From a bacterium (lineage in GTDB: Bacteria > Oederibacteriota > Muellerivitia > Muellerivitales > Muellerivitaceae): a stretch of 64,000 nucleotides of DNA. Below, in pieces: positions 1 to 40,551 of this stretch. Location of the stretch: contig DASZRK010000017.1 of NCBI GenBank assembly GCA_035549195.1, positions 1-64,000 on the forward strand, given 5' to 3'. A program made the position numbers and the translations under genes. Position 1 is the stretch's first letter. Every line of letters starts with the position of its first letter. The notes under the pieces are model-generated. The model was not told the DNA's origin. It did no database searches and was given only the letters and a program-made list of their open reading frames with translations.

Positions 1-316
1 GGGACACCTGCCACTCGGCCCACCAGCCGAGTGGCGTTCTTGGTTGTGCCGAGTCGCGGCGCCGTCGCTTGCGACGGGCGCCAAAACCGGGCGGGCAGGT
101 TCCCTAAATGATCCATCTCCCTTTGCCCAATGGCCGTTCCATGCCCGCCCCAGAACTCGGGACACCTGCCACTCGGCCCACCAGCCGAGTGGCGTTCTTG
201 GTTGTGCCGAGTCGCGGCGCCGTCGCTTGCGACGGGCGCCAAAACCGGGCGGGCAGGTTCCCTAAATGATCCATCTCCCTTTGCCGAATGGCCGCTCCAT
301 GCCCGCCCTGGGACTC
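1..316. repeat. 158-bp imperfect tandem duplication
   Basis: Bases 1-158 and 159-316 are near-identical direct copies; they differ mainly in the last ~35 bases. Each copy contains a 9-bp hairpin (CCACTCGGC/GCCGAGTGG), a second GC-rich hairpin, and the first codons of the aldo/keto reductase. In copy 1 the reading frame from 108 runs into copy 2 and stops at its TAA-ATGA junction, so only copy 2 leads into the full gene. The hairpins could be a terminator of the gene to the left, which lies outside the window. Confidence 0.9.
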
Positions 317-34809: not shown

Positions 34810-34869
34810 CCTGGCGGGGACCGCCAGGAAGTGTGGAACGGAGGCGGTCTCCGGAAAGCCAGGTGCGGT

Positions 34870-36666
34870 ATGTCAAACGACTCGAAGCTGAGCTTCAACC
34901 AGATCATTTGGATGGTTCTAACTCCTCCCCTCTTTTTCCTGGTCATTGACCTCCTGCGATATCTCGCGGGGTTCGATGGCTCCTCCAGTTTCATCGGGAA
35001 TATCCCCCTCAATGTCATCCGGCCCCCGATGTTCCTCTTCCTGCTTTCCTGCCTTCCCTACCCGACCGCCTTCTATTTCCGCCATAGCGACAAAATATTC
35101 TTCATCACCAAGGTGGCTATTAGTTTGTCTGTGGCCATTGACCTTCTCGAATACGTCGCCCCTGAGTACGGCCTCCCCTATTGGGTGGGCTTAAGTCTTT
35201 TGACCATCCTGGGAACCTGGGGTCTCGTTTGGAAAGCGGATGTCGGGAGAAAACCGGACGCGGGACCTTATCCCCTGACCGTGGACAAGGCGGGCCGGAA
35301 AGGATTCCCGACCGACTCCCTCCATATGAACGTCCAGATCGTGGGCGGAACGGGAACCGGCAAGACCCATTTCGTCATCAAACCCTTCATTGAGCAGACC
35401 ATCCATCAGGGCTTGGGATGCTTCGTCTTTGACGTGAAAGGAAACTTACGTCGGGACGTGGCTTACTACCTGAAGACCTCAAGTTATTCAGGCCGCAAAG
35501 GCCTCCTCTACTTTGACGTGGACGATCCACGGGGCTCCGATACCTACAACCCCCTTTACGGTTCCAACCCCGACGCCATCGCCAACCGGGTCTTCACCGC
35601 CCTCTATTACGACAATACCCGGACGGAACCCTATTACGTGGAATTGGGCAAGGCTTTCCTGCACAACCTGGTGGGACTCCTGAAGAAGGAGATCAAGACC
35701 CTGACCTTCCTGGACCTGCTCCTGGCCACGGAGGAGACGGACACCTTTCGAACCATCCATTGGTTCTGCGCCAAACACCCTGATACCCCCTACGCGAGGT
35801 ACTTCCGCAACCAATGGCTGACGAAGCCCGGCAAACAGCGCCAGGAAGAGCTGTCGGGCTTGGTGACCAAGCTCCAGCGCTTCTGCAACAGCGAGTGGGC
35901 CCATCTCTTGAACGTCCGGGACCCCAACATCCGCATGGAGGACGTCGTGAAGAACGACCGGATCTTCCTCTTCTCCCCCAACGCGGCGAAATACCCCGAC
36001 GACGCCAAGCCGCTCTCCATCCTGGCCATGATGGACCTCTCCGAACAGGTCGCCGACCGCTACCGGAACCGACCCGAGAAACCCTTCCGGGTCTTCCTGG
36101 ACGAGTTCTACAACCTGGCCTATCCCCGCTTCATTGACTTCATTAACAAATGCCGTGAAGCGAAAGTGAACCTCTTTTTGGCCCACCAATCCCTGGGGGA
36201 CTTGAGCGGGATATCCCAGGAGTTCCTGGAGCAGGTCATGAACACGGCCCGGAACAAGATCGTCTTGGGGGTGGACGACCCGGCAACGGCGGAACACTTT
36301 GCCCGGCAATTCGGGACCGAACTGGACCAGGACTACCAAGTGGAATCCTTCAAGTCGGACGGGACCATGGCGGGCTATTCCAAACCCAAGGTGGAGAAGT
36401 TCCGGTTCCACCCCAACCTCATCAAGGCCTTGCGGCCCGGCGCGGCCATCGTGAAGGTGGTGGGAACGGCGGGGGTCCACATTTTTGAGGCCTCCCTGAG
36501 ACCGGCTTCCCCCGTCCCGGAGACCTATGAGCCTGGGGCCTCCCATTTCCGCAGGTCGGGGGGCTTGGTGAACGAAAGCTCCCTGGAAGAGGTCATGAAG
36601 CCCAAACCCTGGGACAAGCCCCAGGAGAGGAAGGACGGCGGCATGGGGGACGAAAATGCGGCCTGA
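34870..36666 (+). CDS. VirD4/TraG-family coupling ATPase
   Basis: A 598-residue membrane ATPase. Three to four N-terminal helices (about 15-115) precede the P-loop: Walker A GGTGTGKTH (159-167, Lys165) and Walker B FRVFLDEF (Asp411-Glu412). TraG/VirD4 proteins bring the relaxase-DNA complex to a type IV secretion channel. ATG 34870 with AGGTGCGGT is preferred to a GTG 39 bases upstream. The following gene overlaps by 11 bases. No mating-pair genes are in the element, so it would need a helper channel. Confidence 0.87.
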   Translation: MSNDSKLSFNQIIWMVLTPPLFFLVIDLLRYLAGFDGSSSFIGNIPLNVIRPPMFLFLLSCLPYPTAFYFRHSDKIFFITKVAISLSVAIDLLEYVAPEYGLPYWVGLSLLTILGTWGLVWKADVGRKPDAGPYPLTVDKAGRKGFPTDSLHMNVQIVGGTGTGKTHFVIKPFIEQTIHQGLGCFVFDVKGNLRRDVAYYLKTSSYSGRKGLLYFDVDDPRGSDTYNPLYGSNPDAIANRVFTALYYDNTRTEPYYVELGKAFLHNLVGLLKKEIKTLTFLDLLLATEETDTFRTIHWFCAKHPDTPYARYFRNQWLTKPGKQRQEELSGLVTKLQRFCNSEWAHLLNVRDPNIRMEDVVKNDRIFLFSPNAAKYPDDAKPLSILAMMDLSEQVADRYRNRPEKPFRVFLDEFYNLAYPRFIDFINKCREAKVNLFLAHQSLGDLSGISQEFLEQVMNTARNKIVLGVDDPATAEHFARQFGTELDQDYQVESFKSDGTMAGYSKPKVEKFRFHPNLIKALRPGAAIVKVVGTAGVHIFEASLRPASPVPETYEPGASHFRRSGGLVNESSLEEVMKPKPWDKPQERKDGGMGDENAA

Positions 36667-37597: not shown

Positions 37598-37689
37598 TTG
37601 GTTGTTCTTCGACGCCAGCCCCCACTCCCCCAGGATCAATAGAGATGACCTGGAATTCGGGAGTGGGGGCTGGCTTCTTGAACAACCAA
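37598..37689. repeat. 92-bp compound stem-loop
   Basis: Outer stem TTGGTTGTTC/GAACAACCAA (10 bp), asymmetric internal loop (6/5 bases), inner stem GCCAGCCCCCACTCCC with its perfect complement at 37659-37674 (16 bp), and an apical CCAGG/CCTGG. There is no T-tract, so it is not a normal terminator. Confidence 0.85.
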
Positions 37690-37744
37690 GTGGCTGCGGG
37701 TGCAGGACTCGAAGGATTAGGAGTTAAGACGAAAGACGAACACC

Positions 37745-37859: not shown

Positions 37860-38123
37860 ATGGCGGACCGTCGAAAAGCTGACCGTAGGGCTGCAAGCCA
37901 GGATTGTCTCTTGTCGGAAAGGCAGGTAGCCGAGCTGGCCAAGGTATCGGTGAACACCGTCCGCTACTGGCGGCAAACGGGGCTCCTGCCCTCCGTAAAG
38001 GTGGGTAAGTACCCCCGGATTTGGGCCTCCGTCTTCGACCAAGTCTTCCAAAAACCGACCCCCCTTTCGGCTTGGGCGGCTGGTAAAATGCCTTCTGCTG
38101 GGGACATTAGGAGGCCGTTATGA
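37860..38123 (+). CDS. excisionase-like HTH protein
   Basis: An 87-residue MerR/Xis-type winged-helix protein (LLSERQVAELAKVSVNTVRYWRQTGLLP, residues 17-44), the usual form of recombination directionality factors. AGGAGG precedes the ATG, and its stop overlaps the integrase start (ATGA). It likely switches the integrase toward excision and may also repress transcription from the element's right end. Confidence 0.82.
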   Translation: MADRRKADRRAASQDCLLSERQVAELAKVSVNTVRYWRQTGLLPSVKVGKYPRIWASVFDQVFQKPTPLSAWAAGKMPSAGDIRRPL

Positions 38124-39226
38124 GCAAACCTAATGTTCATGGACTGCCCCAACACCTCCGCAAGGACGGCAAGGGGTATTTCCTGGATTACTTCGTGAAG
38201 GAAGGAGGGTTAAGGAGACGCAAAAGGGTAAGGCTGGGCCAGATACCATTGGCCCAGGCCAAGCGCATCTTGGCGGAGCACACCAAGGAGATCGTCGCGG
38301 GGGAATTCCTGCCGGGCGATAAGCCGCAGGTGAGCTTCGACGAGGCGGCGGAAGCCTTCCTGGCCTTTTCAATGGCGAGGAAAAAAAGCTACAAAAGGGA
38401 CACCCATTCGGTGAAGGCCCTCAAGGCCTTTTTCGGCGGGCGGCCCCTGATAAGCCTGACGCCAAGCTTGGTGGAAGATTACCTGACCGAGCGCCAAAAA
38501 AAGGCCGAGGCAAAGGGCAAGACGCTAAAGGGAGCCACCTTGAACCGCGAGATCGCCTGTCTCAAGACCATCGCCCGTAGGGCGGTCTTGGACCGGAAGA
38601 TCGAATGGAACCCGGTGGTGGGGGTGCGGATGTTCCGGGAGACTTCCCGGAATCGGACGCTGACCCCCGAGGAATACCGGAGGCTCTTGGAGAACTGCTC
38701 CCCCCATTACCGGCCCGTCGTGCAGGTGGCTTACGTCACCGGCATGAGACGGGGCGAGATAACGGGGCTCAAATGGGAACAGGTGGACTTGAAGGAAGGT
38801 GTCATCACCTTGAAGTCCGAGGACACCAAGACCCAGGAGGCCCGGGAGATACCGCTGGACGAGGGTTTGATCGACCTTTTCCGGAAAGTTCCCAAAGTTT
38901 TGGGCAGTCCTTTTGTCTTCAATTTCCGGGGCCACGGGCTAAAGGACCCGAAAACAGCTTTCCTCCGGGCGTGCCAACGTGCTAGTATTTCGGACTTTCA
39001 TTTCCACGATTTACGGCACTGCGCGGTCACGAACTTCCGGAAAGCCGGGGTCAGTGATTCCACGATCATGTCAATCTCGGGACATAAGACGCACGCGGTC
39101 TTCAGAAGATACGACCGCATCGACCGGGGCGACCGAAAGGAAGCCTTGAGGCGGGTCCGGATGTTGGCCAATGACACGGGAATGACACCAGAGGGTCTTT
39201 CGAAAGCTCAAGGGTTCGGAGGGTGA
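38120..39226 (+). CDS. tyrosine site-specific integrase
   Basis: A 368-residue phage-type integrase. Arm- and core-binding N-terminal domains (1-160) are followed by the catalytic domain with Arg210 (TGMRRGE), His296-x-x-Arg299 (HDLR), His322 (GHKT) and nucleophile Tyr331 (RRYDR). All catalytic residues are intact. It lies 36 bases from the tRNA-Ser used as integration site. The last codons contain the 19-base repeat that also occurs, inverted, near the left end. Confidence 0.95.
   Translation: MSKPNVHGLPQHLRKDGKGYFLDYFVKEGGLRRRKRVRLGQIPLAQAKRILAEHTKEIVAGEFLPGDKPQVSFDEAAEAFLAFSMARKKSYKRDTHSVKALKAFFGGRPLISLTPSLVEDYLTERQKKAEAKGKTLKGATLNREIACLKTIARRAVLDRKIEWNPVVGVRMFRETSRNRTLTPEEYRRLLENCSPHYRPVVQVAYVTGMRRGEITGLKWEQVDLKEGVITLKSEDTKTQEAREIPLDEGLIDLFRKVPKVLGSPFVFNFRGHGLKDPKTAFLRACQRASISDFHFHDLRHCAVTNFRKAGVSDSTIMSISGHKTHAVFRRYDRIDRGDRKEALRRVRMLANDTGMTPEGLSKAQGFGG
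39170..39188 (+). repeat. integrase-arm-like repeat, copy 3
   Basis: AATGACACGGGAATGACAC lies within the end of the integrase gene, 73 bases from the attachment core; it is identical to the inverted copy at 8955-8973. Confidence 0.65.
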
Positions 39227-39260
39227 TCCCGATTCGTTGCAGCGTAAGTGTTTTACGGAG

Positions 39261-39302
39261 ATGGAGGGTTAGTCCTAATTGGTAAGGCAGTGGACTTGAA
39301 AT
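39261..39302 (+). repeat. right attachment site
   Basis: 42 bases identical to 8676-8717, running from 2 bases before the tRNA to its anticodon stem. Recombination here restores an intact tRNA-Ser. Confidence 0.85.
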
Positions 39303-39349
39303 CCACCGGGGGAAACCCCTTGCAGGTTCGAGTCCTGCACCCTCCGCCA
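39263..39349 (+). tRNA. tRNA-Ser(TGA)
   Basis: Acceptor GGAGGGT/ACCCTCC, anticodon stem GTGGA/TCCAC with loop CTTGAAA (anticodon TGA), a class II variable arm GGGG-AAA-CCCC, T arm GCAGG-TTCGAGT-CCTGC, and encoded CCA. Its 5' half and upstream sequence came with the element; the 3' half is host. Confidence 0.93.
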
Positions 39350-39487
39350 CATGGAAGGAATGGACTTTCCATCCCTTCCATGTGGCTTAGTGTGTTGAAG
39401 GACGAGAACCGTAGGTTCGGCGCCGCCAAAAGCGGCGGGACAAAAGTTTCCATCAAGAAGAGACGACTATAAATGTTTCTTTTGTCC
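39347..39487 (+). ncRNA. structured segment A after tRNA-Ser(TGA)
   Basis: A 12-bp hairpin CCACATGGAAGG/CCTTCCATGTGG, then GAACC/GGTTC (39406-39418), CGCCGC/GCGGCG (39421-39437) and a long-range GGACAAAAG/CTTTTGTCC (39438-39487) enclosing 32 bases. The same arrangement recurs 300 bases downstream. Confidence 0.5.
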
Positions 39488-39558
39488 GGATCTGCCCCTC
39501 TTCCGCTTTCGGTTGGTTAGCTGTTGATTTTTTGATCTAGTTCTCTTTTTAAGCGATC

Positions 39559-39650
39559 GGAGAGGTGGCCGAGCGGCTTAAGGCGACGGTTTGCTAAACC
39601 GTTGGAGGGGTAACACCCTCTCGAGGGTTCGAATCCCTCCCTCTCCGCCA
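39559..39650 (+). tRNA. tRNA-Ser(GCT)
   Basis: Acceptor GGAGAGG/CCTCTCC (read CCCTCTCCG at the 3' end), anticodon loop TTGCTAA with GCT, a long variable arm, T arm AGGG-TTCGAAT-CCCT and encoded CCA. Class II serine tRNA. Confidence 0.93.
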
Positions 39651-39787
39651 TAGAAAGGGGCGCTCGAAGGGCGCCTCGTTCTATGGCTTTCATACAAAAG
39701 ATTCGAACCCTCGGGTTCGGGGTCGCCCAAGGCGGCCGGACGAAAGTTTCGATCAGGAAGAACCGGTGATGACTGTTTCTTTCGTCC
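39648..39787 (+). ncRNA. structured segment B after tRNA-Ser(GCT)
   Basis: CCATAGAA/TTCTATGG hairpin, CGAACC/GGTTCG (39704-39719), GGTCGCC/GGCGGCC (39721-39737) and GGACGAAAG/CTTTCGTCC (39738-39787) around a 32-base loop. The last stem has a G-C where segment A has A-T, a compensatory change. Confidence 0.5.
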
Positions 39788-39984
39788 TGACCTCCCTCTC
39801 AAGTGGGTTTCGAGCCCATAGGGTCCGGATTCTTTCTTGTCTCGTATTTAGTATTCCCGCCCCTCACCGACCTCTACCTCTAGTTGTCCGCCCTTCCCAT
39901 GGCCCCGAACACCAGTATTTCCTTACCCCCTGTCCTTCCCTCGGGTAAAATATCGTTATTCGCTATACCTATGAGGAGACACCT
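39788..39984. other. intergenic, no gene seen
   Basis: With segment B this makes 334 bases between the tRNA and the next gene. It is pyrimidine-rich and shows no supported reading frame. GAGGAG before 39985 serves the lipoprotein. Confidence 0.5.
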
Positions 39985-40551
39985 TTGAACACCTTCCTGA
40001 GAAACGCCTCGTTCGTAGCCCTTCTGGCGCTGTCGGCGGCGCTCCTTCCCGCCTGCGGTAGCAAATCGAACGTCCAAAGCGACAAAGCCCCCGAGACCGT
40101 CCTGAACCCCGAGACCACCCCCACCGTCGAGACCTCCGTCTCCACCGGCGACGAGAACGGCACCTCCATCCGCACCCACGTCCAGAAGTCCTATACCGCC
40201 AAGATCCACCGCACCAAGGGCCCCAACTCCACCACCACCGTCGTGACCACGCCCACCGATGCCACCCCGGTCATCACCCCGGCCGCCACCCAGAACACCG
40301 CTCCCATGGAAAGCACCCCGGCGCCGGTCAAGAAGTCCAGCGGCCCCCACTGGTTCCTCTGGTTCCTGGTGCTGGTCGTCTTGGGCGGGATCGGCTGGTA
40401 CTTCTGGCAGAAGAACCAGGAAGACTTCACGAACCAGTCGCCCAAGCCCCCCACGGGCGGGCTCTCCCCGGTGAGCGGTTTCACCGCGGTGCGTTCCAGC
40501 ATCGATAACGAAGAAAAAAAGCCTTCCATCTGGACCCGGAAGCTTTTCTGA
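39985..40551 (+). CDS. lipoprotein with second transmembrane segment
   Basis: A 188-residue protein. A lipoprotein signal (LLALSAALLPAC, lipid-attachment Cys25) is followed by a Thr/Pro/Val-rich extracytoplasmic linker (30-115), then an unusual second membrane helix (about 122-142, HWFLWFLVLVVLGGIGWYFW) and a hydrophilic tail. TTG start with GAGGAG 8 bases before. Lipidated N-terminus plus internal membrane helix is an odd topology. Function unknown. Confidence 0.7.
   Translation: MNTFLRNASFVALLALSAALLPACGSKSNVQSDKAPETVLNPETTPTVETSVSTGDENGTSIRTHVQKSYTAKIHRTKGPNSTTTVVTTPTDATPVITPAATQNTAPMESTPAPVKKSSGPHWFLWFLVLVVLGGIGWYFWQKNQEDFTNQSPKPPTGGLSPVSGFTAVRSSIDNEEKKPSIWTRKLF

What the first reader, a model, noticed from the sequence alone, without database searches (positions are those of the whole stretch)
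39347..39787. Duplicated structured RNA after two tRNA-Ser genes with a compensatory change
Each serine tRNA is followed by the same order of hairpins. The two final stems start exactly 300 bases apart (39438, 39738) and pair as GGACAAAAG/CTTTTGTCC and GGACGAAAG/CTTTCGTCC, an A-T to G-C covariation. GAACC-type and GC-rich hairpins are also kept while loops diverge. This suggests selection on RNA structure: a tRNA-linked non-coding RNA or processing element.
Basis: seen in the sequence. Interest (0 to 1): 0.65.

Follow-up and report, generated by a model that had tools for sequence, protein, structure and literature searches.

The report
Hairpin element inside broken serine-tRNA copies
Next to its serine tRNA genes this uncultured bacterium carries broken pieces of the same tRNA genes with a small two-hairpin element lodged in one of the tRNA loops; the hairpins are truly conserved, but the thing looks more like a tiny mobile or copied repeat than like an ordinary tRNA-processing signal.

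Summary
A covariance search found 18 strong copies of the two last hairpins in 5 of 9 family/order genomes (relatives include candidate division FCPU426 MAGs) and none in the rest of a 384-genome sample. 12 of 16 base pairs show changes on both sides. All 18 copies belong to tRNA-Ser loci. Each sits inside a partial second copy of a tRNA-Ser gene: in the T-loop of a 3' fragment downstream of the intact gene (as in the window) or in the D-loop of a 5' fragment upstream. With the core removed, the flanks match the neighbouring tRNA in 16 of 16 copies tested. A further 39-40 nt hairpin pairs the encoded CCA with TGG; its sequence is nearly free, its structure fixed. Core similarity follows neither tRNA locus nor genome, and the closest non-tandem pair joins a T-loop and a D-loop copy. 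I read it as a short double-hairpin repeat that moves or is copied among truncated tRNA-Ser genes. An RNA function, chiefly of the CCA hairpin, is not excluded; no transcript data were available.

The parts
39263..39349 (+). intact tRNA-Ser(TGA); its 5' half doubles as an attachment site of an integrated element
39347..39385 (+). H1 hairpin: encoded CCA pairs with TGG, 17 pairs and 1 mismatch
39406..39418 (+). H2 hairpin GAACC/GGTTC: inverted then direct copy of the T-arm; for this copy the inverted part is degenerate (77 of 300 shuffles score as high)
39421..39437 (+). H3 GC hairpin, first half of the double-hairpin core
39438..39487 (+). H4 stem GGACAAAAG/CTTTTGTCC with its loop, second half of the core
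39488..39504 (+). remnant of the tRNA-Ser(TGA) 3' end after the core
39559..39650 (+). intact tRNA-Ser(GCT)
39648..39686 (+). H1 hairpin of the second copy: CCA pairs with TGG
39704..39719 (+). H2 hairpin CGAACCC/GGGTTCG: inverted then direct copy of the T-arm
39721..39737 (+). H3 GC hairpin of the second copy
39738..39787 (+). H4 stem GGACGAAAG/CTTTCGTCC with its loop, second copy
39788..39799 (+). remnant of the tRNA-Ser(GCT) 3' end after the core

Best explanation
The feature is a tRNA-Ser-linked, gene-less repeat. Its core (H3+H4, 58-71 nt) is a double hairpin that sits in the T-loop or D-loop of truncated tRNA-Ser copies flanking the intact gene. It spreads or is copied between such fragments, most likely as folded single-stranded DNA through transposition, recombination or replication template switching. 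Insertions persist only where an intact tRNA gene remains or is restored beside the broken one. The downstream version also carries an inverted copy of the tRNA 3' end, which makes the CCA-pairing hairpin H1 and the hairpin H2. Shown: the structure, the covariation, the position inside tRNA fragments, the serine linkage and the patchy distribution. Inferred: mobility, the single-stranded intermediate and the survival filter. No enzyme was identified.
For: 18 strong copies (E below 1e-4) in 5 of 9 family/order genomes; 5 of 45 phylum genomes; 5 of 384 sampled genomes. All 18 are at tRNA-Ser loci, four isoacceptors. Covariation: 95.4% of 281 cells paired, 12 of 16 pairs with changes on both sides, 0 of 500 shuffles as high; partners slid by 1-3 columns drop to 36-51%. 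With the core removed, the flanks match the neighbouring tRNA in 16 of 16 copies, 0 of 300 shuffles each. Core identity does not follow locus (permutation p 0.85) or genome (p 0.21), and the closest non-tandem pair, 84%, is a T-loop copy and a D-loop copy of one genome. Orthologous tRNA spacers without any copy exist in G001 and G008, and a 122-bp unit is repeated three times in G002. In the core the mismatches show no G-U excess over A-C (3 against 5), which does not favour RNA-level selection there.
Against: No transposase or autonomous partner was found. Y1 transposases occur in 6 of 9 genomes but not in G006, which has five copies; reverse transcriptases are missing from four of the five carriers. 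Restriction to tRNA-Ser is unusual for a free mobile repeat. Copies are few (3-5 per genome). Core similarity does follow D against T type (p 0.017), so exchange between loops is limited; the single 84% pair lies only 169 bp apart and could be local gene conversion. H1 keeps its length and pairing while its sequence changes, with G-U 8 against A-C 1 (p 0.039), which points to an RNA role for that part. For T_G004_CGA and T_G005_CGA another tRNA-Ser of the genome scored above the neighbouring one.
Confidence: 0.5

Rival explanations
1. A functional structured RNA made with the tRNA precursor: H1 hides or marks the encoded CCA end and H2-H4 direct 3' processing, stability or regulation of serine tRNAs.
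For: H1 is present in 9 of 29 tRNA-Ser genes and always beside the inverted/direct T-arm copy, while only 1 of the other 20 has such a unit directly after it (Fisher p 1e-6). H1 has 14 of 18 pairs with changes on both sides at fixed length, and G-U exceeds A-C 8 to 1. No terminator-like site was found on the + strand of 39150-40000, so read-through is possible.
Against: Absent from the other tRNAs of the genome and from close relatives with intact tRNA-Ser genes. The core has no G-U excess. Upstream D-loop copies cannot serve 3' processing. No transcript evidence.
Confidence: 0.27
2. No function and no mobility: replication template switching at tRNA palindromes created the inverted and direct copies and keeps the hairpins perfect.
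For: The order tRNA 3' end, inverted copy, direct copy is what double template switching makes; the inverted arm copy was matched by at most 5 of 300 shuffles in 11 of 16 copies. The abstract of PMC8794818 states that template switching can create and maintain hairpins and can explain compensatory changes.
Against: It does not explain why one particular double hairpin with a partly conserved interior recurs in T-loops and D-loops of four isoacceptors, nor the restriction to serine.
Confidence: 0.15
3. Scars of integrative elements: partial tRNA-Ser copies are attachment-site remnants, and H3-H4 is a leftover end of such an element.
For: An integrase-bearing element in this window sits in the 5' half of tRNA-Ser(TGA); the window's genome and a relative have GIY-YIG and restriction-modification genes beside tRNA-Ser.
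Against: Copies carry no genes, occur as tandem 122-bp units, and at G000 tRNA-Ser(CGA) the host-specific trailer hairpin itself is duplicated, which element-borne attachment sites would not do.
Confidence: 0.08

Closest known systems
Mitochondrial double-hairpin and repetitive hairpin-forming elements (fungi, algae, sponges)
   Same: short gene-less elements of one or two hairpins, patchy between relatives, found in spacers and inside RNA genes (PMC2800124, abstract start and passages; the double-hairpin papers seen only as a search listing)
   Different: here bacterial, few copies, and only in loops of truncated tRNA-Ser copies
REP / BIME repeats thought to be mobilised by RAYT transposases
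   Same: small palindromes that may be mobile and transcribed (PMC3733652, abstract)
   Different: 3-5 copies per genome, tied to tRNA-Ser, no consistent Y1 transposase; the terminal tag was not tested
Hairpins made by template switching / quasipalindrome correction
   Same: inverted and direct copies side by side, perfect stems (PMC8794818, abstract and start of introduction)
   Different: does not account for a recurring core at two tRNA loops
Rfam sX4 (RF02223)
   Same: sub-threshold match covering tRNA-Ser and downstream bases
   Different: best score 42 bits against a cut-off of 70; the alignment shows that the score comes from the tRNA part

Membership tests
REP/RAYT repeats | high copy number, interspersed (over 100 per genome, as stated in the abstract start of PMC2817692 seen in the listing) | tested here: not met
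   3, 4, 3, 3 and 5 strong copies in the five carrier genomes, all at tRNA-Ser
REP/RAYT repeats | a Y1 tyrosine transposase in the same genome | tested here: inconclusive
   found in 6 of 9 genomes, none in G006 which has five copies; genomes are incomplete assemblies
REP/RAYT repeats | GTAG or CGTC tag at one end | not tested
   flanks were only listed, not searched for tags
double-hairpin elements | two adjacent conserved hairpins | tested here: met
   H3 and H4, 12 of 16 pairs with changes on both sides
double-hairpin elements | presence/absence between related genomes | tested here: met
   5 of 9 family/order genomes carry strong copies; empty spacers in G001 and G008
double-hairpin elements | demonstrated movement to new sites | not testable with these tools
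   no strain series; one T-loop/D-loop pair at 84% identity is only suggestive
curated RNA family (Rfam 15) | match at or above a family's gathering score | tested here: not met
   only the two tRNAs in the window; a permissive search of 39200-39900 gives nothing credible beyond tRNA
general tRNA 3' processing element | present after most or all tRNAs of the genome | tested here: not met
   long stem from the CCA region together with H2 only at three of 44 tRNAs, all Ser
general tRNA 3' processing element | transcribed with the tRNA | not testable with these tools
   no RNA data

The most novel reading that the evidence does not exclude
A previously undescribed kind of bacterial parasite or tRNA companion: a gene-less double-hairpin element that recognises serine tRNA genes by the shape of their D- and T-loops, inserts there, and is tolerated because each insertion comes with a restored intact tRNA gene whose CCA end is capped by an RNA hairpin.
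Probability: 0.25. Interest if true: 0.75.

Novelty: new variant of a known kind. Interest (0 to 1): 0.5.

Why it matters
Covariation is usually taken as proof of a functional RNA. Here strongly covarying hairpins sit in fragments of tRNA genes and look like a repeat that is moved or copied, so the case bears on how RNA-like structure arises and is maintained. If the element targets tRNA loops by shape, that would be a new insertion logic, and it would help explain how tRNA-Ser genes become crowded with fragments and integrated elements.

Tried and rejected
Exact patterns across genome contigs gave first nothing and then 10 stretches. Five of these are records of this family (two labelled Proteobacteria, identical in contig length to contigs of G006). 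The other five (Rubrobacter, Paracoccus, Euryarchaeota, Prevotella and Lysobacter records) have no tRNA gene found by ARAGORN in the fetched stretch and, by eye, do not fold as H3-H4; they were dropped as chance. Of the weak covariance hits I read three (G005:C24 and G002:C63, G005:C43): none has a tRNA; the rest of those above E 0.01 were dropped unread, except G002:C69 (E 0.027), a degraded D-type copy next to tRNA-Ser(GCT), which I did not count. A 19th, degraded D-type copy in G006 is one of the 18 distinct rows of the pair count, where identical G002 tandem rows collapse. H2-like patterns outside the family were two places in G015, both without tRNA.

Viral contigs gave no match to the T-type pattern; phage and plasmid records gave none to one short piece each. 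Rfam sX4 and the plastid family RF04351 match tRNA sequence. Reverse-transcriptase and Y1 associations did not track the carriers. A conserved outer acceptor stem around the intact tRNA was considered and dropped by eye, because the outer 3' ends are decayed in several copies.

Literature: eight searches listed no paper whose title or abstract start describes hairpin elements in tRNA-Ser fragments of bacteria; the library lacks most subscription journals. Papers opened: PMC8794818 (abstract and start of introduction), PMC3733652 (abstract), PMC2800124 (passages); all others only as search listings.

Full report
Check of the observation. The regions after the tRNAs fold with z -5.59 and -5.01. 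Rfam sees only the tRNAs.

Anatomy. After each encoded CCA comes H1, a 39-nt hairpin that pairs CCA with TGG, then a spacer, then H2, H3 and H4. The two copies align over 84 columns of H2-H4 without gaps. Comparison with the tRNAs shows that H2 consists of an inverted and a direct copy of the T-arm, and that the bases after H4 are again tRNA 3' end. H3-H4 is therefore an insertion after GGTTCG in the T-loop of a partial tRNA copy.

Copies elsewhere. A covariance model of ten cores finds 18 strong copies in 9 family/order genomes: G000 3, G002 4, G004 3, G005 3, G006 5, none in G001, G003, G007, G008. The same five genomes are the only ones among 45 of the phylum and 384 sampled relatives (stricter filters were used there and only 13 candidates were scored per genome shown). 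That the window's own genome belongs to the same group rests on the tool's family label.

Two positions. Eleven copies are T-type (3' fragment, T-loop, downstream of the intact gene; two of them behind a 2.6-kb restriction-modification insert in G006). Seven are D-type (5' fragment, D-loop, upstream of the intact gene; three of these form a 122-bp tandem array in G002). With the core taken out, the flanks align to the neighbouring tRNA above all 300 shuffles in 16 of 16 copies; in 2 of 16 another tRNA-Ser of the genome scored higher. An inverted copy of the T-arm or anticodon arm was matched by at most 5 of 300 shuffles in 11 of 16, and not in 5 of 16, among them the window's TGA copy.

Covariation. 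Ten seed cores: 97.5% of cells paired, 10 of 16 pairs changed on both sides. All distinct rows: 95.4%, 12 of 16, with shuffled and slid controls far below; this alignment was fitted to the model and leans towards the structure. H1 in nine T-type loci: 96.3% paired, 14 of 18 pairs changed on both sides. Pairs other than Watson-Crick: core G-U 3, A-C 5, others 8; H1 G-U 8, A-C 1, p 0.039 without correction for relatedness.

Who carries H1. Of 29 tRNA-Ser genes in eight genomes, nine have a long stem starting at the CCA end, and all nine are followed by the H2 copy; of the other 20 only one has a T-type unit directly after it (read by eye; test). One of the nine, G004 tRNA-Ser(TGA), has a decayed core. 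In the window's genome, of 44 tRNAs only Ser TGA, GCT and CGA show H1 with H2; other tRNAs have ordinary terminators or nothing comparable, judged by eye.

History. Core identity is not higher for the same tRNA locus in different genomes (p 0.85) nor within a genome (p 0.21), but is higher within type (p 0.017). The best non-tandem pair, 84%, joins a T-loop copy at TGA and a D-loop copy at GCT in G005. The TGA-GCT spacer has no copy in G001 and G008, and no T-type copy in G002 and G007. At G000 tRNA-Ser(CGA) the trailer hairpin is duplicated after the core. These point to gain, loss and copying rather than to a fixed gene.

Mechanism. I favour a short double-hairpin repeat that moves or is copied as folded single-stranded DNA between tRNA-Ser fragments. 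The step that makes the inverted copies looks like template switching, reported to create and maintain hairpins (PMC8794818, abstract and start of introduction). No enzyme was found: Y1 transposases and reverse transcriptases do not track the carriers. An RNA function of H1 remains a serious rival. Why serine alone is unexplained.

Known relatives. It resembles double-hairpin elements of mitochondria and REP-type palindromes in form, but fails the REP copy-number feature, and its habitat is different.

Noticed in passing
window 8676-39302: A 30.6-kb integrated element between 42-nt identical repeats that hold the 5' half of tRNA-Ser(TGA), with a tyrosine recombinase (38120-39226, PF00589) beside the intact tRNA and a TraG/TrwB-like coupling protein (34831-36666); use of the 5' half of a tRNA as attachment site is noteworthy.
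   Followed up: partly
window 37686-37713 and 39327-39354: Inside the integrated element a 28-nt inverted match (89%) to the tRNA-Ser(TGA) 3' end including the start of H1; may be chance.
   Followed up: no
L058 746-3350: In G006 a 2.6-kb restriction-modification cassette (N6/N4 methylase and HNH nuclease) sits between the CCA of tRNA-Ser(CGA) and its H1 hairpin, with CCGCCATA on both sides.
   Followed up: partly
L056 657-1170 (positions as printed, reverse strand): Downstream of tRNA-Ser(GGA) of the window's genome, a partial and a complete GIY-YIG gene, each ending in a 3' half of the same tRNA whose anticodon arm is replaced by a short hairpin.
   Followed up: partly
L050 607-663; L170: Another hairpin type (CAACTTTCGC...GCGAAAGTTG) follows tRNA-Ser genes in G002, suggesting further palindromic repeats at tRNA ends.
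   Followed up: no
window 39594-39647, minus strand: Rfam family RF04351 (plastid psbI-rps4 3'UTR) matches the antisense of tRNA-Ser genes below its cut-off, and RF02223 (sX4) contains a tRNA-Ser-like part; both families seem to include tRNA sequence.
   Followed up: no
window 1-316: Two head-to-tail copies of 158 nt, 97% identical.
   Followed up: no
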